From assembly GCA_002733505.1 (NCBI GenBank), contig NVVW01000022.1, positions 1 through 44,165 on the forward strand: a stretch of DNA of 44,165 nt, read 5' to 3'. Of this stretch, positions 16,925 through 25,356 are shown in pieces (the stretch's first letter is position 1; each line of letters opens with the position of its first letter). The position numbers and the translations under genes are program-made. Below the pieces are notes generated by a model. It was given only the letters and a program-made list of their open reading frames with translations, was not told the DNA's origin and searched no databases. This DNA is from Methylophaga sp. (GTDB lineage: Bacteria; Pseudomonadota; Gammaproteobacteria; Nitrosococcales; Methylophagaceae).

Positions 16925-18438
16925 CTGAAAAACTTGCATCCTTCCCCGGTGGTTTAGTGCTTGATGGTCAAAAACGGCGTTCGACACAAACACCTATCCG
17001 CCAAACACCGTTGAGCAAAAATCTGATCTTGCCATTGCAACAACATATTGGCGCTGCTTCTGTAGCTATCGTAGAAGTCGGTGACAAGGTATTAAAAGGC
17101 CAGAAAATTGCCCGTGCAGAAGGTCATGTTTCGGTATATTTGCATGCCCCTAGCTCGGGTATCATTACTGCCATTGATGAACAACCCATCCCACATCCAT
17201 CGGGCTTGTCAGCATTATGTATTAGCCTTGAAACCGATGGTGAAGATTGCTGGATTGAACACCAAGGCACGGACGATTTCGCCAGCTTATCTGAACACGA
17301 TATCCGTCAGCGGATTCGTGAAGCAGGTATTGTTGGGCTGGGTGGTGCGGGGTTTCCTAGTTTTATTAAACTGAACCCCAGCGTACACCATCATGTTGAC
17401 ACATTAATTTTAAACGGTGTCGAATGCGAGCCTTATATCACTTGTGATGATATGTTGATGCGGGAGCGCGCCGAAGGCATTCTTGATGGTATTGAGATCA
17501 TGCACTATGCCCTGCATGTTAAAAACTGCGTTATTGCCATCGAAGATAATAAAGCTGAAGCTATTAGTGCAATGGAGCTTGCATTGTCACAACGACCTGA
17601 GCTACAAAACACAAAAGTCGTAAGCATTCCAACACGCTACCCAGCAGGCAGCGAAAAACAATTAATTCAAGTCATTACCGGCAAACAAGTCCCTACTGCA
17701 GGCTTGCCTATTGATTTAGGTATTGTTTGCCACAACGTCGGCACAAGTTACGCCATTGGTCGTGCCATCAAACATGGTGAACCACTCATTTCACGCGTCG
17801 TTACCGTAACAGGTACTGATGTGGCTCATGCGGGCAATTTTGAAACCCTATTCGGCACGCCAATGCATGAACTATTAGCTTTTTGTAAAACTGAGCGCCA
17901 GCCAGATGAGCCCTTTATCTTGGGCGGCCCGATGATGGGTTATAACCTTTCGGGGGATCACCTCCCCGTTACTAAAACAGCTAACTGTATCTTGGTGGGC
18001 GTTGAAAATGCAGCACCCGATGCTAAGCCTATGCCTTGTATTCGCTGTGGTGAATGTGCCACTGCCTGCCCTGTCGGCTTGCTACCACAGCAACTCTATT
18101 GGCATGCCCGCGCTAAAGACTTAGACAAAACAGAAGACTATAATCTATTCGATTGCATCGAATGTGGCTGTTGCAGTTATGTTTGCCCGAGTAAAATTCC
18201 TTTGGTGCATTATTTCCGTTTTGCTAAAACAGAAATAATGAATCAACAACAAGAAACACTAAAAGCTGATAATGCTCGAATACGCCACGATAACCGACAA
18301 CATCGACAAGAATTAGAGAAAAAAGAAAAACAAGAACGCCAACGTCAGCGTAAAGCTGCGCTTGCGGCGACGAAAGCGGCAAAAGAAAAAGAAGCGGCTA
18401 AACAAAGCAATGAAGCTGATAATGTGGAGAACAACTGA
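16921..18438 (+). CDS. rnfC: Rnf complex NADH-binding subunit RnfC
   Basis: RnfC carries the FMN and NADH sites and two [4Fe-4S] clusters of the Rnf complex at the cytoplasmic face. The N-terminal barrel-sandwich region is followed by a Rossmann-like segment with [13 protein letters not shown]. The cluster motifs are [12 protein letters not shown] and [12 protein letters not shown]. The C-terminus is a Lys/Gln/Glu/Ala-rich tail, as in gammaproteobacterial RnfC. Length is 505. The stop codon sits in TGATG, the usual coupling signal to rnfD, but the following ATG now runs into an inserted element. Confidence 0.97.
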
Positions 18439-18444
18439 TGCCCA

Positions 18445-18710
18445 GATACCCAAACTACTTGGAGATGCAGGCTTCAGAGTTCAGTACGAATGTCAGGGCA
18501 AGGCGCAAGGCGCAGGAAATGGCTAGTCCTTGTCAAACATTGCAACGTAGCACTGGCTTTCGCACTGAGATCCCGAAGGGCATGATGATAAACTACCATC
18601 TTCTACGTTATAAAATGGTGAACTAGAATGACTAGTCCTACAATTTTATGCCTCAAATATGGTAGCTTTTCATCATGCTGAAACCTACATCTCCAAATAG
18701 CTCGGGTATT
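18445..18710 (+). mobile_element. 266-bp MITE-like inverted-repeat element, copy A
   Basis: The ends are imperfect inverted repeats of about 32 bp (ATACCCAAACTACTTGGAG on the left against its complement at the right end). The interior aligns end to end with the reverse complement of 23355-23620. It contains two hairpins: arms 18477-18488 with 18561-18572, and arms 18593-18599 with 18659-18665. It encodes no transposase, so it would move only with help. It lies between rnfC and rnfD, begins four bases after the ancestral rnfD ATG, and contains the present rnfD start codon. Confidence 0.85.
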
Positions 18711-19730
18711 AGCCGCTTATCATCACCTTTTTTATCAGGCACTAATCGCGTAACCCTGCAAATGTTGCAATTATTGCTAGCACTAGTGCCCGCAGTCATT
18801 GGTATTGTGTATTTCTTTGGCCCTAGTGTACTTATCACCATGGCGTTAGCCATAGTCGTGGCACTGCTAGCAGAAGCATTGATGCTAAAACTACGTAATC
18901 GTCCACTAAAACCCTTCTTAACCGATGGCAGTGCTATTGTTACAGCTGCGTTACTTGCTATCGCCTTACCACCTCTTGCTCCATGGTGGTTAGTTACAAC
19001 CGGTATATTGTTTGCCATAATTTTTGCAAAACATCTTTATGGCGGTTTGGGTTACAACCCCTTCAACCCTGCAATGGTGGCCTATGTAGTTTTGCTAATT
19101 TCATTTCCATTAGAAATGACAACATGGTTACCTGTCACAACACTAAGTGAGCAACCGCTTAATTTTGAGTCCACATTTCAAATGATATTTACAGGTCAAG
19201 TGAGCAGTGGCATTGCTATTGATTCGCTGTCAGGCGCTACGCCACTTGATGCGATGAAAACACAAATAGGCTTACTGCAAAACCCTGCTGATATTATGCA
19301 ACAACCACTGTTTGGCTTATTCAGTGGTAAAGGCTGGGAATGGATCAATATTTTATTTATTATTGGCGGTCTATACCTGCTTTATCGCCGTGTTATCAGT
19401 TGGCATATCCCGACGGCTATGATTGTTAGCTTGGCTATAATAAGTGGCATCACATGGCTGGTCGCACCTGAAACAACCGCTTCGCCATTATTCCATCTGC
19501 TGAGTGGTGGCACCATGTTAGGTGCGTTCTTTATTGCTACCGATCCGATCACTGCATCAACAACCGTCAAAGGTCGACTAGTATTTGGTGCGGGCGTGGG
19601 CTTATTAACCTATATTATTCGTGTGTGGGGTGGTTATCCTGATGGCATCGCCTTTGCTGTTATATTGATGAATATGTTGGTGCCATTAATTGATTACTAT
19701 ACCCAACCCAAAGTATATGGGGCGAAATAA
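18675..19730 (+). CDS. rnfD: Rnf complex subunit RnfD
   Basis: RnfD is a membrane subunit with a covalently bound FMN. The attachment motif is SLSGATPLDAMK near residue 180, with the flavinylated Thr in SGAT. About ten membrane segments are seen and the length is 351 residues. Conserved RnfD sequence starts around SSPFLSGTNRVTLQML. The first ~12 codons, including the ATG, come from the right terminus of the inserted element, and no clear ribosome site precedes the ATG. The old start, ATG at 18438 overlapping the rnfC stop, now reads into a 62-codon dead-end frame. Confidence 0.93.
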   Translation: MLKPTSPNSSGISRLSSPFLSGTNRVTLQMLQLLLALVPAVIGIVYFFGPSVLITMALAIVVALLAEALMLKLRNRPLKPFLTDGSAIVTAALLAIALPPLAPWWLVTTGILFAIIFAKHLYGGLGYNPFNPAMVAYVVLLISFPLEMTTWLPVTTLSEQPLNFESTFQMIFTGQVSSGIAIDSLSGATPLDAMKTQIGLLQNPADIMQQPLFGLFSGKGWEWINILFIIGGLYLLYRRVISWHIPTAMIVSLAIISGITWLVAPETTASPLFHLLSGGTMLGAFFIATDPITASTTVKGRLVFGAGVGLLTYIIRVWGGYPDGIAFAVILMNMLVPLIDYYTQPKVYGAK

Positions 19731-20359
19731 TGAATCAGGTCCAAAGCCATATTCTAAAAGTTTCCTTGATGCTGGCAGTTTTTGCCATCGTTGCTACTAG
19801 CTTAGTGAGTTTCACCGAAATTAATACACGTGAACAAATTAAAGAAAATGAACGTCAAGCACTATTAGCTGCGCTCAATGAATTAGTTGATGCTGATAGC
19901 TATGATAATGATATTTTAGCAGATACTATTCTTTTGCCCGCTGTCACTGAACTAGGCACAACAGAAGCTATTCAAATTTATCGTGCTCGTAAAGGTGAAA
20001 AACCTGTTGCAACCGTACTGACCAGCATTGCACCTGATGGCTATAGCGGCAAAATAAAACTACTTGTTTGCATTAATTATGATGGTAGCCTTGGCGGTGT
20101 GCGTGTTATTCAACATAAAGAAACACCCGGATTAGGTGATAAAATTGAGGCTAAAAAAACAGATTGGATTTTAGCTTTCAAAGGCTTATCATTACAGAAC
20201 CCTAGTGAATCAAAATGGAAAGTGAAAAAAGATGGCGGGGAATTTGACCAATTTACCGGTGCGACCATTACGCCTCGTGCTATAGTCACAGCGGTGAAAA
20301 AAGCATTACTCTATTTTGAAAAACATCGCGATGAATTATTTGAGGTCACTGAACAATGA
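19730..20359 (+). CDS. rnfG: Rnf complex subunit RnfG
   Basis: RnfG is anchored by an N-terminal helix ([16 protein letters not shown]) and carries a periplasmic covalently bound FMN at the Thr of [12 protein letters not shown] near residue 177. The 209-residue length is normal. Its start overlaps the rnfD stop by one base and its end overlaps rnfE by four, so translation is coupled. Confidence 0.96.
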
Positions 20360-21051
20360 GCAGTATCTATCGCCCAATTATTCGTGAAGGATTATGGAAG
20401 AACAATCCTGCCTTAGTCCAACTATTAGGCTTATGTCCTCTGCTTGCTGTCAGTAATACCGTTATTAATGGTTTGGGATTAGGGCTAGCCACTATTTTGA
20501 CCTTAGTTGCCTCTAACGGCATAATTTCATTGCTTCGTAATCATATTCCCGATGAAGCACGGTTACCTGTTTTTGTATTGATCATTGCTTCAATCGTAAC
20601 CATTATTGAGCTGTCGATGAATGCGTGGTTTCATGAGCTTTATTTAATATTAGGTATTTTTATCCCGTTAATTGTAACCAACTGTGCCATCATCGGCCGT
20701 GCTGAAGCTTTTGCTGCACGCAATCCTGTTGGCCCCGCATTGGTTGATGGTTTGATGATGGGCATTGGATTCACTGCTGTTTTAGTGCTTTTAGGTGCGA
20801 TGCGTGAACTGATCGGTATGGGTACATTATTTAGTGAAGCACACTTAATGTTTGGTGACGCGGCAAAAAACTTAACCATTACCGTATTTGAAGATTATCG
20901 CGGCTTTTTATTGGCACTATTGCCGCCCGGTGCTTTTATTGGGCTGGGTTTAATTGTGGCATTAAAAAACGTAATTGATGCTCGCCTATCAACTAAACAA
21001 ACTCAGACTATTATAGAAATCGAAGCCGAAGCCATTCCAGCGCCTAACTAA
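20356..21051 (+). CDS. rnfE: Rnf complex subunit RnfE
   Basis: RnfE is homologous to RnfA, with six membrane helices in inverted topology. It holds the paired motifs [17 protein letters not shown] near residue 17 and [15 protein letters not shown] near residue 108, whose cysteines contribute to the membrane FeS cluster. The 231-residue length is usual. Its stop overlaps the nth start by one base. Confidence 0.96.
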
Positions 21052-21692
21052 TGAATCAAGCCCAACGCCACGATTTTTTTGCGACGCTCAAGGCGCATAA
21101 ACCCGAACCCACTACCGAGCTTAATTATTATTCTACCTTTGAATTATTGATTGCCGTTATTTTATCGGCACAAGCAACCGATGTGGGTGTCAATAAAGCC
21201 ACGGATAAACTGTATCCCATTGCCAATACACCTCAAGCGATTTTAGATTTAGGCGTTGACGGACTTAAACAGTATATTAAAACCATTGGTTTATATAATA
21301 GTAAAGCAGAAAATGTGATTAAAACCTGTCGGCAGTTACTCGAATTGCACGATGGTGAAGTGCCAGATGATCGTGAAGCACTTGAGGCCTTACCCGGCGT
21401 AGGTCGAAAAACAGCCAATGTTATTCTAAACACCGTTTTCAAACACCCCGTCATTGCCGTTGATACCCATTTATTTCGGCTTTCCAATCGTACTGGTTTG
21501 GCGAAAGGTAAAACGGTGCGTGCTGTTGAAGATAAGCTAATGAAAGTCGTGCCTGATGAGTTTAAACAAGATGCACATCACTGGTTAATTTTGCACGGCC
21601 GTTATGTGTGCATTGCTCGAAAACCACAATGTGGCATCTGTGTCGTCTCACATTTATGCGATGATTTTCGTCGTCAAAAAAAAGCGGCATAA
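21051..21692 (+). CDS. nth: Endonuclease III
   Basis: A DNA glycosylase/AP lyase that removes oxidised pyrimidines. The helix-hairpin-helix LPGVGRKTANVIL contains the catalytic Lys, and VDTHLFRLSNRTGL contains the catalytic Asp. The C-terminal [4Fe-4S] motif C-x6-C-x2-C-x5-C is seen in CIARKPQCGICVVSHLC. Length is 213 residues. Its position after rnfE is conserved in gammaproteobacteria including E. coli. Confidence 0.97.
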   Translation: MNQAQRHDFFATLKAHKPEPTTELNYYSTFELLIAVILSAQATDVGVNKATDKLYPIANTPQAILDLGVDGLKQYIKTIGLYNSKAENVIKTCRQLLELHDGEVPDDREALEALPGVGRKTANVILNTVFKHPVIAVDTHLFRLSNRTGLAKGKTVRAVEDKLMKVVPDEFKQDAHHWLILHGRYVCIARKPQCGICVVSHLCDDFRRQKKAA

Positions 21693-22114
21693 TGTTTGAT
21701 CAAAACCGCCAACAATTACGCCAAATGTATCATGATACTTGGCAAAAAAAACAAGCTAATGCATCATTATCGGCATTAGAATCAATGATCGCCCAAGTGA
21801 TCAGCGAACATGCTGAATATCATAAAATATTTAATAGTGATGCCAGCCTAGAACAGGACTATTTTGTGGAGGACGGACAGACTAATCCCTTTCTTCATAT
21901 GGGTTTACATCTCTCTTTGCATGAACAAATATCTACCAATCGTCCTACCGGAATTCGTGATCTCTATCAGCAATTACGTGCTAAATTCGGCAATACTCAT
22001 GATGCAGAGCATCAGATGATGGAATGTTTGACTGAAAGTCTGTGGATCGCCCAACGTAATAAACAAACACCCTCAGAATCTGACTATTTAATAGCATTAC
22101 AAAAATTAGTGTGA
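21692..22114 (+). CDS. DUF1841 family protein
   Basis: A 140-residue soluble protein beginning MFDQNRQQLRQMYHDTW. It contains the family-typical stretch NPFLHMGLHLSLHEQISTNR and AEHQMMECLTESLW. The function is unknown. The start overlaps the nth stop by one base, so it is the last gene of the rnf-nth transcription unit. Confidence 0.82.
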   Translation: MFDQNRQQLRQMYHDTWQKKQANASLSALESMIAQVISEHAEYHKIFNSDASLEQDYFVEDGQTNPFLHMGLHLSLHEQISTNRPTGIRDLYQQLRAKFGNTHDAEHQMMECLTESLWIAQRNKQTPSESDYLIALQKLV

Positions 22115-22161
22115 ATACTAATTTCACCGCTGATCAACGGATAAAAAAACAAGGATAAATT

Positions 22162-23160
22162 ATGAAAGCTTTAGGGTTCAGCAGTAACGATACATCAGCA
22201 CAATTACTTGAACAATCCACACCACAGGCAACGGCACATGACTTGCTCATCAAAATTGATGCTATTGCCGTTAACCCCGTCGACACTAAAGTCAAAGCCA
22301 GTATTAAAGCCCCCATATCACCCGCTAAAATAGTGGGTTGGGATGCTACAGGCACGGTGGTTGCCATAGGTGATCACGTTGAGTTATTCAAACTCGGTGA
22401 TAACGTTTTCTATGCCGGCGATGTAACTCGTCCCGGTTGTTATGCCAGTCATCAACTGGTTGATGAGCGTATTGTTGGCCATGCGCCTACATCATTATCT
22501 GTAACAGAAATAGCCGCTATGCCACTTACCAGTATTACCGCATGGCAAGCATTATTTTCTCGTCTTCGGATCAATAAAAAACACGATGCAGGTAAAAATA
22601 TCCTTATTATTGGTGGTGCCGGCGGTGTGGGCTCTATTGCTATTCAGTTGGCAAAAAAAGTGGCAGGGCTTAATGTTATTACTACCGCTTCTCGCTCTGA
22701 ATCTGAGCAATGGTGTCGAAAAATGGGCGCTGACCATGTGATAAATCATCATAGCGAAATGGTGTTGCAATATCGTACTTTAGGCCTGCGTGATCCTGAT
22801 TATATTTTATGTTTGAATGATACCGATCGACACTTTGCTGCTATGGCAGAACTGATTGCGCCTCAAGGATTAATTTGCAGTATTGTTGGCACTCAACAAA
22901 AACATGATTTAGATTGTCTAAAATCAAAAAGCGCCGGTTTTGTCTGGGAGTTTATGTTTACCCGGTCTATGTTTAAAACTAGTGATATGATTGAACAACA
23001 TCATTTGCTCAACACTATTGCAAAACTGCTTGATGACGGGATATTAACCAGCACATTGAACCACGTTATTGGCCCGCTAACTACCGAAAATATTGAGAAA
23101 GCACATATAAAATTATTATCTGGATCAACTATCGGTAAATTAGTTTTAACATCAATATAA
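22162..23160 (+). CDS. Zinc-type alcohol dehydrogenase-like / quinone oxidoreductase
   Basis: A 332-residue medium-chain dehydrogenase/reductase. The N-terminal GroES-like domain has NPVDTKVKAS. The NADPH-binding motif GGAGGVGSIAIQLAKK is near residue 150. Zinc ligands of true alcohol dehydrogenases are not conserved, so it is probably an NADPH:quinone or enone reductase of the zinc-binding-ADH-like (ZADH/QOR) subgroup. AAGGA lies before the ATG. It is separate from the rnf unit by about 47 bp. Confidence 0.88.
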   Translation: MKALGFSSNDTSAQLLEQSTPQATAHDLLIKIDAIAVNPVDTKVKASIKAPISPAKIVGWDATGTVVAIGDHVELFKLGDNVFYAGDVTRPGCYASHQLVDERIVGHAPTSLSVTEIAAMPLTSITAWQALFSRLRINKKHDAGKNILIIGGAGGVGSIAIQLAKKVAGLNVITTASRSESEQWCRKMGADHVINHHSEMVLQYRTLGLRDPDYILCLNDTDRHFAAMAELIAPQGLICSIVGTQQKHDLDCLKSKSAGFVWEFMFTRSMFKTSDMIEQHHLLNTIAKLLDDGILTSTLNHVIGPLTTENIEKAHIKLLSGSTIGKLVLTSI

Positions 23161-23195
23161 AAACAGCGCATTCCACCAAACCTATTATCGTCATG

Positions 23196-23354
23196 TACCC
23201 GTGATCATTCAAAGTACGGTTTTTTGGTATGTATAATGGATGAGGTAGCAAGGCATAATAGTGATGTAATAGCTATCCTATTGCTCACTATTATAACGCA
23301 GCTAGCGCATTCAGTATACGTGCTAAAAATCTGTATTTTGAATGGTCACGGGTA
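23196..23354. repeat. 159-bp palindromic inverted-repeat element, type 2
   Basis: The ends are inverted repeats of about 30 bp (TACCCGTGATCATTCAAAG on the left; complement of TACCCGTGACCATTCAAAA on the right). A second internal palindrome pairs CATAATAGTGA with TCACTATTATA. No protein is encoded. It directly abuts the 266-bp element that begins at 23355. Confidence 0.75.
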
Positions 23355-23620
23355 TATACCCAAAATACTTGAAGATGCAGGTTTCAGCAAGAGAAGAAGC
23401 CATTATATTCTAGGCATAAATCCGTAGAATGAGTCATTCTCATTTAAGGATTTATAACGACGAAGATAATGGCTTATCCTCTTGCCCTACGGGAGCTTAG
23501 CACGAATGCCAGCACTGCGTTACAATGCTCGACAAGGACTAGTCATTGCCTACACATTGCGCCTTGTTCTGGCCTCCGTGCTAAGCTCTGAAATCTACAT
23601 CTTCAAGTAATTTGGATATA
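23355..23620 (-). mobile_element. 266-bp MITE-like inverted-repeat element, copy B
   Basis: Terminal inverted repeats of about 33 bp (TATACCCAAAATACTTGAAG at the left, complement of TATATCCAAATTACTTGAAG at the right) enclose two hairpins. One has arms GCCATTAT (23399-23406) and ATAATGGC (23466-23473), extended by ATAAATCC/GGATTTAT. The other has perfect 12-bp arms GAGCTTAGCACG (23493-23504) and CGTGCTAAGCTC (23577-23588). Its reverse complement aligns over its full length with 18445-18710. It ends eight bases before the dnaG start codon. Confidence 0.88.
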
Positions 23621-23628
23621 GTTCTAAT

Positions 23629-25356
23629 ATGGCCGGCCAAATCCCCCCCCAATTTATTGATGACTTATTAACCCGCGTTGACGTTGTTGATGTTGTTGAT
23701 GCGCGCGTGCCATTAAAAAAAGCAGGCAAAAACCTGCAAGCCTGTTGCCCATTCCATAACGAAAAAACGCCCTCGTTTACCGTCAGCCCTGAGAAGCAGT
23801 TTTATCACTGTTTTGGTTGTGGCGCACACGGCACGGCAATTGGTTTTTTGATGGAATACGATCAAATGAGTTTCCCTGAGGCGATTCAAGAGTTGGCGGA
23901 TCTGGCGGGCATGACCGTGCCAACGACAAGTTTTGTGAACGCCCAACCTTCAAGACAAAACCTGTATGACTTGACGGATAAAGTCAGCCAATATTATGTA
24001 CATCAGCTACACAATCATCCGCAAAAGACGGCTTTTGTAAATTATTTGCAACAACGAGGCTTGTCTGCGCAAATTATTGAACACTTCAATATCGGCATGG
24101 CACCAGACGGTTGGGATAATGTGCTAAAAACGTTCGGTGCAAATGATCAAGCGCGCAAGCAGTTAGATGAGGTTGGTTTATTAAGCAGCAATGATAAAGG
24201 ACGGCAATATGATCGCTTCCGTAACCGCATTATGTTTCCAATTAAAGATCGCCGGGGACGCGTTGTAGGATTCGGCGGTCGCGTATTGGATGACAGCACG
24301 CCAAAATACTTAAATTCACCCGAAACCCCACTTTTTCATAAAGGCAATGAGCTTTATGGTTTATTCCAAGCGCGCAAAGCCAATCGAAAATTAGAGCGAA
24401 TCATTATCGTTGAAGGTTATATGGATGTGATTGTGTTAACGGATCATGGCATTACTAATGCGGTGGCAACATTGGGCACGGCAACCACACCTGATCATTT
24501 ACGACAATTATTACGCAGCGCTCCCGAATTAGTATTTTGTTTTGACGGTGATCGTGCGGGTCGCGAAGCCGCATGGCGCGCAGCAGAAAATGCAATGCCA
24601 CTGTTAGGCGGTAATCATCAGCTAAAATTTATGTTTTTGGCTGATGGTGAAGATCCAGATAGCGTGGTGCGACAACAAGGTGCAGAGCAATTTAATCGTT
24701 TAGTGGGTCAGGCGCAGAATTATTCAGACTTCTTTCTAGCCACGCTTGAAGCACAAGTTGATATTAGTTCAATGGATGGCCGTGCCCGATTAATTGAAAT
24801 TGCTAAACCGTATCTTCGGCAGATCCCCGCAGGTATTTATCGTGATATGTTGGAGCAGAGACTAGCAGAAAAAGCCAATACTAACACTGCTATGTTACAC
24901 AAACATCTAGGAAAATCGGCTGAAAATACAGTAAAAAAACATAAAAAGCCATTAAAGTCGTCATCGGCTATTTCTCCAATTAGGATGGCGATTACTATTT
25001 TATTGCAACATCCTGAACTTCATGCCGAGATTGGTGCTTTCGATAAACTGGCATCATTAGAGCGCGCTGGCTTAACTATTTTAGTACAACTACTTGAAAC
25101 TTTAAGCCAGAACCCACATCTAACTACTGCAATGTTATTAGAACGTGCGCGAGATAGTGAACATGAAGGCCATTTGCACCAGTTAGCGCAACAAACCCTA
25201 ACATTGAGTGCTAAGGAATTGCAGCATGAGCTAACAGGCATTATTCAGCAATTGCAGCAACAAGCTATTGAACAGCGCCATGCATATCTAGTAGCAAAGG
25301 GTTTAGGCAACTTGACGGACGAAGAACGAATAGAAATTAATAGCTTAAATAGTTAA
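23629..25356 (+). CDS. dnaG: DNA primase
   Basis: DnaG makes RNA primers at the replication fork. The 575-residue protein has the N-terminal CHC2 zinc finger (CCPFHNEKTPSF then HCFGCGAHG). The catalytic TOPRIM domain shows IIVEGYMDVIVL and FCFDGDRAGREAAWRA. A C-terminal helicase-interaction region follows. It precedes rpoD, as in the macromolecular synthesis operon, but rpsU is not directly upstream. Instead the start lies eight bases after a miniature element, and no ribosome site is visible in that short gap. Confidence 0.96.
   Translation: MAGQIPPQFIDDLLTRVDVVDVVDARVPLKKAGKNLQACCPFHNEKTPSFTVSPEKQFYHCFGCGAHGTAIGFLMEYDQMSFPEAIQELADLAGMTVPTTSFVNAQPSRQNLYDLTDKVSQYYVHQLHNHPQKTAFVNYLQQRGLSAQIIEHFNIGMAPDGWDNVLKTFGANDQARKQLDEVGLLSSNDKGRQYDRFRNRIMFPIKDRRGRVVGFGGRVLDDSTPKYLNSPETPLFHKGNELYGLFQARKANRKLERIIIVEGYMDVIVLTDHGITNAVATLGTATTPDHLRQLLRSAPELVFCFDGDRAGREAAWRAAENAMPLLGGNHQLKFMFLADGEDPDSVVRQQGAEQFNRLVGQAQNYSDFFLATLEAQVDISSMDGRARLIEIAKPYLRQIPAGIYRDMLEQRLAEKANTNTAMLHKHLGKSAENTVKKHKKPLKSSSAISPIRMAITILLQHPELHAEIGAFDKLASLERAGLTILVQLLETLSQNPHLTTAMLLERARDSEHEGHLHQLAQQTLTLSAKELQHELTGIIQQLQQQAIEQRHAYLVAKGLGNLTDEERIEINSLNS

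What the first reader, a model, noticed from the sequence alone, without database searches (positions are those of the whole stretch)
18445..23620. Two diverged copies of a 266-bp element share two hairpins with compensatory changes
Seen: 18445-18710 and the reverse complement of 23355-23620 align end to end with ~32-bp terminal inverted repeats. Stem CTACCAT/ATGGTAG in copy A corresponds to GCCATTAT/ATAATGGC in copy B, and three pairs differ on both sides while remaining paired (T-A vs C-G, C-G vs T-A, C-G vs T-A). In the other long stem (GAGTTCAGTACG vs GAGCTTAGCACG) two more pairs change on both sides, though copy A also has two mismatches. Inference: structure, not only sequence, has been kept. 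That fits either a folded RNA or a DNA hairpin recognised by a transposase.
Basis: partly seen in the sequence, partly recalled or inferred. Interest (0 to 1): 0.8.

Follow-up and report, generated by a model that had tools for sequence, protein, structure and literature searches.

The report
Mobile repeat with self-matching DNA arms
Two stretches of this bacterium's DNA are copies of a small mobile repeat that carries no gene for its own movement; its folding arms have stayed matched while their letters changed, likely through DNA rather than RNA, and one copy is predicted to supply the start signal of a respiratory gene.

Summary
They belong to a transposase-less repeat family: 45 full-length copies read in three genomes of one genus, five more in three further genomes. 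Relatives show empty sites. The same genome holds an intact IS630-family element with related ends (TATACCC-N14-TGCAG), so this is very likely an IS630-type MITE. Pairing is conserved far beyond a tree-based null: 72 same-branch compensatory changes against 6.5 +/- 2.4. But single-sided changes go to G-U and A-C in similar numbers (44 and 29; 33 and 30), unlike RNase P of the same genus (38 and 4). Pairing is therefore likely kept as DNA, not RNA; arm-to-arm copying in replication fits best, unproven. Copy A sits within four bases of the native rnfD start codon; a sister copy sits likewise in nuoE. In both, the native start opens a 61-62-codon leader, and 48 bases after its stop an element ATG opens the gene's frame. 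Known kind, unusual variant.

The parts
18445..18710 (+). Copy A of the repeat element, inserted at the 5' end of rnfD
   Evidence: no element in the 16 relatives' junctions printed (of 37 loci fetched)
18445..18476 (+). Left terminal inverted repeat of A
18477..18572 (+). Inner hairpin 1 of A (decayed arm of the three-armed fold)
18579..18679 (+). Inner hairpin 2 of A
18679..18710 (+). Right terminal inverted repeat of A; with the bases just before it, it encodes the first 11-12 codons of the extant rnfD frame
18438..18626 (+). Leader frame: native rnfD start codon (overlapping the rnfC stop, TGATG) now reads 62 codons into the element and ends at TAG 18624-18626; translation untested
   Evidence: native start by comparison with relatives
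18675..19730 (+). rnfD (electron transport complex subunit D); no ATG, GTG or TTG lies in frame between the element's ATG at 18675 and codon 30
   Evidence: NF002011 461.6 bits, TIGR01946 427.5 bits
16921..18438 (+). rnfC, upstream neighbour
23355..23620 (-). Copy B of the repeat element, 8 bp upstream of dnaG
23493..23588 (-). Inner hairpin 1 of B
23386..23486 (-). Inner hairpin 2 of B
23355..23356 (.). TA shared by B and the neighbouring element (GGGTA-TA-TACCC), read as the target-site duplication
   Evidence: same junction at other copies
23196..23354 (+). Second, different TATACCC-type element abutting B
   Evidence: 19 other places in the genome with matches of at least 150 bases
23629..25356 (+). 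dnaG, downstream of B
   Evidence: TIGR01391 486.8 bits

Best explanation
Copies A and B belong to a repeat family, 45 full-length copies of which were read in three genomes, that is likely moved in trans by an IS630-type (Tc1/mariner) transposase and whose three stems have stayed paired through changes on both sides, probably at the level of DNA and not of RNA. Shown: copy number, shared ends, no reading frame of 80 codons inside either copy, sites without the element in relatives, an intact IS630 transposase gene between related ends in the same genome, and covariation above a tree-based null in the terminal stem and in both inner hairpins. Inferred: cut-and-paste movement into TA; arms re-matched by template switching during replication (a change in one arm is copied to the other or reversed), with the terminal repeats also held alike because one transposase must bind both. 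Shown in sequence for copy A: it lies four bases behind the start codon that relatives use for rnfD; that codon now opens a 62-codon leader ending inside the element, and 48 bases further an element ATG opens the rnfD frame. Inferred: ribosomes (re)start at that ATG. The sister copy in nuoE has the same layout, so only insertions that hand on a start in frame probably survived in these operons.
For: Family: 42 full-length copies in G000 (19), G023 (16) and G008 (7), plus three in G023 with other terminal repeats, plus five in G041, G044, G061; 10 of 63 genomes of the order, own included, match at E<=1e-6. No 80-aa frame inside either copy. Ends: TATACCC...GGGTATA; adjoining elements read GGGTATATACCC. 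Autonomous partner: 1,111-bp IS at G000 C22:70-1180 and C28:103544-104654, ends TATACCCGTAATCCTTCAATTTGCAG / TATACCCGTGATCATTGAAACTGCAG, transposase NF033545 221.8 bits, PF13358 125 bits; these ends and those of two broken IS630 relatives match the element's end types at 18-23 of 26 positions (A's own decayed ends 15-20). Sites without the element: rnfD in 16 of 16 printed relatives (of 37 loci fetched); nuoE in 27 of the 28 other genomes of the genus, the 28th giving no match there. Covariation: 72 double changes on single branches against 6.5 +/- 2.4, maximum 15 of 200; terminal stem 31 against 3.1, hairpin 1 21 against 1.7, hairpin 2 20 against 1.7, 300 runs; 0 of 500 shuffles, slid controls 34-42% paired against 95.8%. 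DNA not RNA: single-sided WC to G-U against WC to A-C 44:29 (24 copies) and 33:30 (40 copies), RNase P 38:4; Fisher p 5e-4 and 4e-5; in 88 mostly Watson-Crick pairs 44 G-U against 59 A-C cells, 26 types each. Paired and unpaired columns vary alike (mean minor-letter fraction 0.142 over 202 and 0.155 over 64 columns). Template switching as a source of multi-base compensatory change: PMC8794818 (passages). IS630 elements insert at and duplicate TA: PMC2170065 (passages). Leader and restart in A and L002; NuoE and NuoD named.
Against: An R-scape-like all-pairs test on 40 closer copies gave 0 significant pairs. The 24-copy count leans to G-U (44:29), and on that set reversions run the other way (A-C to WC 43, G-U to WC 27). 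In consensus the + strand folds better: 33 of 41 copies have lower + strand energy, mean -5.8 kcal/mol, and eight of 100 pairs have G-U as commonest state while none has A-C; this hints at past strand preference or at the folding program's bias. For the commonest end type the middle 14 bases match the four IS ends at only 6-9 positions (shuffle p 0.027), so this exact IS may not be the mover. TA duplication is not proved by a clean filled/empty pair: at A and L002 junction bases are lost or changed, at L036 and L075 the flanks align only loosely or with a substitution. Loop inversion, which template switching can produce, was not seen: AATGAC occurs in 21 of 24 rows, GTCATT in none. The tree ignores recombination between copies (L061 seems to join arms of two types, by eye). 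No transposition, transcription or translation was measured.
Confidence: 0.7

Rival explanations
1. A folded RNA made from the element is selected, and the compensatory changes are the mark of RNA function.
For: Strong covariation; + strand folds better in 33 of 41 copies and eight consensus pairs are most often G-U; copy A would be in the rnf transcript if the operon is transcribed as one (neighbouring frames overlap; inference).
Against: No RNA-like excess of G-U over A-C among new single-sided changes, in contrast to RNase P of the same genus; copy A folds worse on its operon-sense strand (-96.4) than on the other (-123.4); no Rfam match at E<=1 in 18000-24500.
Confidence: 0.1
2. The inner hairpins are recognised as extruded DNA hairpins (cruciform or single strand) by a transposase or host protein, and selection for that shape keeps them paired.
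For: Near strand-symmetric pairing conservation; hairpin 1's 70-bp core recurs inside a second element family with other flanks; Y1 transposases, a kind that reads single-stranded hairpins (recalled), occur in G000, G008 and G023.
Against: No copy listed lies within 10 kb of the four G000 Y1 genes that pass the cut-off (in each of those first-look candidates were scored, of 88 and 115), and two of seven Y1 loci carry GTAGGAGC-type repeats instead; IS630 enzymes bind terminal repeats through helix-turn-helix motifs (PMC2170065, passages); paired columns are not slower than unpaired ones.
Confidence: 0.15
3. The pairing is an artefact of shared descent: a perfect palindrome was copied and has not had time to decay.
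For: All-pairs test on 40 close copies: 0 significant pairs.
Against: A null with the inferred changes placed at random on the tree predicts 1,721 +/- 47 paired cells against 2,319 seen of 2,421, and 6.5 double changes against 72; copies such as L227 have largely rewritten but paired stems.
Confidence: 0.05

Closest known systems
RUP of Streptococcus pneumoniae with IS630-Spn1
   Same: Small element without a gene, ends shared with an IS630-family IS, insertion at sites holding TA (PMC2229807, passages seen)
   Different: RUP is 107 bp with 9-bp contiguous terminal pairing; this one is 266 bp, three-armed, with several end types on one body
Correia/NEMIS of Neisseria
   Same: TA-ended small repeats, stem-loop transcripts, some in-frame fusions (PMC2229807, passages seen)
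   Different: RNase III processing and IHF binding were not tested here, nor was sequence kinship to Correia
CIR of Caulobacter/Brucella
   Same: Two long inverted-repeat arms (PMC2229807, passages seen)
   Different: CIR is described there as lacking the 5'-end to 3'-end stem; here the termini pair as a third stem
ISY100 and IS630/Tc1-mariner elements
   Same: TA target and duplication, terminal repeats bound by two helix-turn-helix motifs (PMC2170065, passages seen); this genome's IS630 transposase has HTH-type and DDE_3 domains
   Different: The element here is non-autonomous
Enterobacterial RU-1/2/3 small mobile sequences with reading frames
   Same: Element frames fused to genes (PMC2759123, passages seen)
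   Different: Here the element hands an operon gene a possible restart codon after a leader, at the same position in two operons; 'start codon', 'initiation codon' and 'translation start' have 0 occurrences in that paper's main text

Membership tests
IS630-derived MITE | No transposase gene; short; many copies | tested here: met
   266 bp, no 80-aa frame inside A or B, leader frame of 62 codons; 45 full copies in three genomes
IS630-derived MITE | Terminal repeats shared with an IS630-family IS of the same genome | tested here: inconclusive
   TATACCC and TGCAG shared; 18-19 of 26 positions against the own IS for the commonest end type, 22-23 at best for types L074, L076, L080, L161; A's decayed ends 15-17
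IS630-derived MITE | Insertion at TA with TA duplicated | tested here: inconclusive
   Supported by GGGTATATACCC where elements abut and by sites such as G000 GGTATAGATACC without and G023 GGTATA|TACCC..GGGTA|TGGATACC with the element (L075); no fully clean filled/empty pair, and A and L002 have altered junctions
IS630-derived MITE | Intact transposase gene available | tested here: met
   342-aa frame without stops in two places, NF033545 and PF13358 over cut-offs
IS630-derived MITE | Movement in trans | not testable with these tools
   needs a transposition assay; sites without the element show past insertion only
Structured RNA family | Covarying pairs with G-U tolerated and A-C not | tested here: not met
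   44:29 and 33:30 against 38:4 for RNase P
Structured RNA family | Match to a described family | tested here: not met
   no Rfam match at E<=1 in 18000-24500
REP/RAYT system | Element copies next to the Y1 transposase gene | tested here: inconclusive
   no listed copy within 10 kb of the four G000 Y1 genes over the cut-off (40 candidates scored in each); two of seven Y1 loci carry GTAGGAGC-type repeats
RUP / Correia | Sequence kinship | not tested
   neither sequence was fetched

The most novel reading that the evidence does not exclude
A mobile DNA whose three-armed palindrome is kept matched by replication itself: template switching rewrites both arms together, producing RNA-like covariation with no RNA behind it. 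The same element acts as a portable translation-restart cassette (leader frame, stop, 48 bases, ATG) that has replaced the starts of two respiratory operon genes, rnfD and nuoE, in one lineage.
Probability: 0.3. Interest if true: 0.75.

Novelty: new variant of a known kind. Interest (0 to 1): 0.5.

Why it matters
Covariation is widely taken as strong evidence of a functional RNA. Here strong covariation arises in a mobile element whose wobble pattern points to DNA, so counting G-U against A-C changes could be a cheap check for false RNA calls in repeats. The rnfD and nuoE insertions also suggest how a palindromic insertion inside a tight operon can be survived by re-creating a start codon.

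Tried and rejected
R-scape-like scan (APC-corrected G-test, 100 alignments simulated on the tree) over all column pairs of 40 close copies: 0 pairs at E<0.05. I judge it short of power for near relatives; I then added more diverged copies and tested the named pairs. Both results are reported.

RNA family: Rfam gave nothing. Plasmids and phages: no match for B. Promoter/terminator scan of 18380-18780: one promoter-like and one terminator-like site, both on the minus strand, not pursued.

ATG at the element's right end as a mark of gene capture: among the 42 copies only A and L002 have ATG in that frame, 39 have TTG and one is off frame; but L161 and L162, outside that set, also have ATG with a stop a few codons on (by eye), so ATG alone proves nothing. 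Three further copies open long frames through TTG (L033, L075, L077); in L033 and L077 a later ATG looks like the native start (by eye).

Selection of rows: A2 holds 41 rows (38 of the 42 copies, L069, L071, L073 and L075 left out as near-duplicates, plus L161-L163). A3 holds 24 rows that I picked for diversity from 46 (41 plus 5), leaving out rows with 48-bp inserts. RNase P control: 22 of the 30 loci returned, those of near-full length (27 of 29 genomes had a match).

Literature: eight searches, of which I saw listings only, and passages of five papers: PMC10969869, PMC2229807, PMC2170065, PMC8794818, PMC2759123. In these I saw no report of this element, of covariation testing in bacterial MITEs, or of a MITE giving a start codon to rnfD or nuoE. 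Most subscription papers are not in that library.

Full report
What was checked. A (18445-18710) and B (23355-23620, minus) align end to end with 197 of 266 positions alike and 13 pair-preserving two-sided changes. Both fold as a closed terminal stem carrying two long hairpins. The window is one contig (C13) of a 2.37-Mb draft genome; of the nine RnfD relatives with 80-90% identity, seven are titled Methylophaga, Methylophagaceae or Piscirickettsiaceae MAGs.

What it is. Searching the same genome gave 54 (A) and 82 (B) matches, fragments and self-palindromic hits included. Full-length copies read: 19 in G000, 16 in G023, 7 in G008, three more in G023 with another terminal repeat, and five in G041, G044 and G061. 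In the order, 10 of 63 genomes, own included, match at E<=1e-6; plasmid and phage collections have no match for B. Several G000 contigs end inside copies, as repeats do to assemblies. In G023 five places tie at 93% to B, which suggests a recent burst.

Ends and mover. The ends are TATACCC...GGGTATA, most often TATACCCAAATTACTTGAAGATGCAG, but the same body also occurs between quite different ends (L074, L076, L080, L161), whose left and right arms are identical over 23 bases in those four. Where elements abut, the junction reads GGGTATATACCC, as expected if each is TACCC...GGGTA flanked by a duplicated TA; no fully clean filled/empty pair was found. G000 has a 1,111-bp IS630-family insertion sequence with related ends and an intact transposase frame. 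IS630 elements insert at TA and duplicate it (PMC2170065, passages), and RUP is the published precedent of a gene-less element with IS630 ends (PMC2229807, passages). The link from this IS to this element is an inference: the four divergent end types match the IS ends at 22-23 of 26 bases at best, the commonest at 18-19, or 21 for broken IS630 relatives in G023 and G008.

Covariation. On 24 diverse copies with a 101-pair consensus, 95.8% of cells pair, 57 pairs show two-sided change, none of 500 shuffles reaches any of the five measures, and slid controls pair at 34-42%. Because shared descent can mimic this, I placed the inferred changes at random on the tree: 72 same-branch Watson-Crick double changes were seen against 6.5 +/- 2.4 (maximum 15 of 200). 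All three stems contribute: terminal 31 against 3.1, hairpin 1 21 against 1.7, hairpin 2 20 against 1.7. An all-pairs test on 40 close copies found nothing. The structure was derived from the same alignment, parsimony and midpoint rooting were used, and recombination between copies is ignored.

RNA or DNA. RNA helices tolerate G-U but hardly A-C, whereas DNA pairing and arm copying should treat them alike. Single-sided changes from Watson-Crick go to G-U 44 and A-C 29 times (24 copies) or 33 and 30 (40 copies); RNase P of the same genus gives 38 and 4 (Fisher p 5e-4 and 4e-5). On the complement strand the element gives 39 and 30. Paired and unpaired columns vary alike, so mismatch seems not to be punished. 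This fits replication template switching, which has been proposed to make multi-base compensatory changes (PMC8794818, passages). Against it, no apical loop inversion was seen, and the consensus + strand folds somewhat better than its complement.

What copy A does. In the 16 relatives' junctions printed (of 37 loci fetched) rnfC runs straight into rnfD; in the nearest the start reads ATGCC(A/T)TTAAG, and seven that I translated begin MPLSRLSSPFL. In the window the element begins four bases behind that ATG. The native start (18438) now reads 62 codons and stops at TAG 18624-18626; 48 bases on, the element's ATG (18675) opens MLKPTSPNSSG-ISRLSSPFL. No other ATG, GTG or TTG precedes codon 30 in frame. 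The sister copy L002 lies between nuoD and nuoE in the same orientation and place, with a 61-codon leader, 48 bases and ATG, though NuoE could also start at a junction ATG at codon 12. The nuoE site lacks the element in 27 of the 28 other genomes of the genus; the remaining one gave no match there. Translation by restart is predicted, not shown. B lies 8 bp upstream of dnaG, next to a second TATACCC element.

Verdict. The thing is a transposase-less mobile repeat, very likely of IS630 type, with pairing kept most likely at the DNA level. The two start-codon insertions in respiratory operons are its most interesting consequence.

Noticed in passing
L002 (G000:C42:14572-14835): Sister copy of A between nuoD and nuoE with the same leader-stop-48 bases-ATG layout; the NuoE frame opens MLKPTSSSSLGMLTGSK.
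   Followed up: yes
window 23196-23354: A second TATACCC-type element (ends TACCCGTGATCATTCAAA...TTTGAATGGTCACGGGTA) abuts B upstream of dnaG; 19 other places in G000 with matches of at least 150 bases.
   Followed up: partly
L027-L030: The 70-bp core of hairpin 1 recurs, in these four loci read, inside a shorter, single-hairpin element with ends like TATACCCGTRATCATT.
   Followed up: partly
L042, L045, L046, L047, L070, L160; G000:C22:19574-20031: 48-50-bp inserts (pattern GCTCCTGC...ATCCATG, 18 in G000, 0 in the reversed control) sit inside the hairpins of element copies; those aligned lie just 5' of AATGAC, AACGC or AACGAC. By eye they hold two small hairpins with conserved loops, like IS200/IS605-type mini-elements (likeness recalled). 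The C22 copy carries three.
   Followed up: partly
window 15725 (+), 41697 (-), 6668 (-): Lone TATACCC-like ends (one before rnfA, one at the 33-bp gap between two genes), possibly remnants.
   Followed up: no
L285, L287: Y1 transposase genes with GTAGGAGCGGCTTCAGCC(GCGA) repeats nearby, which look like Pseudomonas-type REPs (likeness recalled).
   Followed up: no
L075 (G023:C60:5222-5486): A copy interrupts a gene that by eye looks like an ion antiporter (no family search run); three relatives' places read GGTAT(T/A)GATACC uninterrupted.
   Followed up: partly
G000:C7:8554-8628, C32, C27, C28 and C29 ends: Short stretches identical to the last 23-25 codons of the IS630 transposase: internal-deletion derivatives or broken IS copies.
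   Followed up: no
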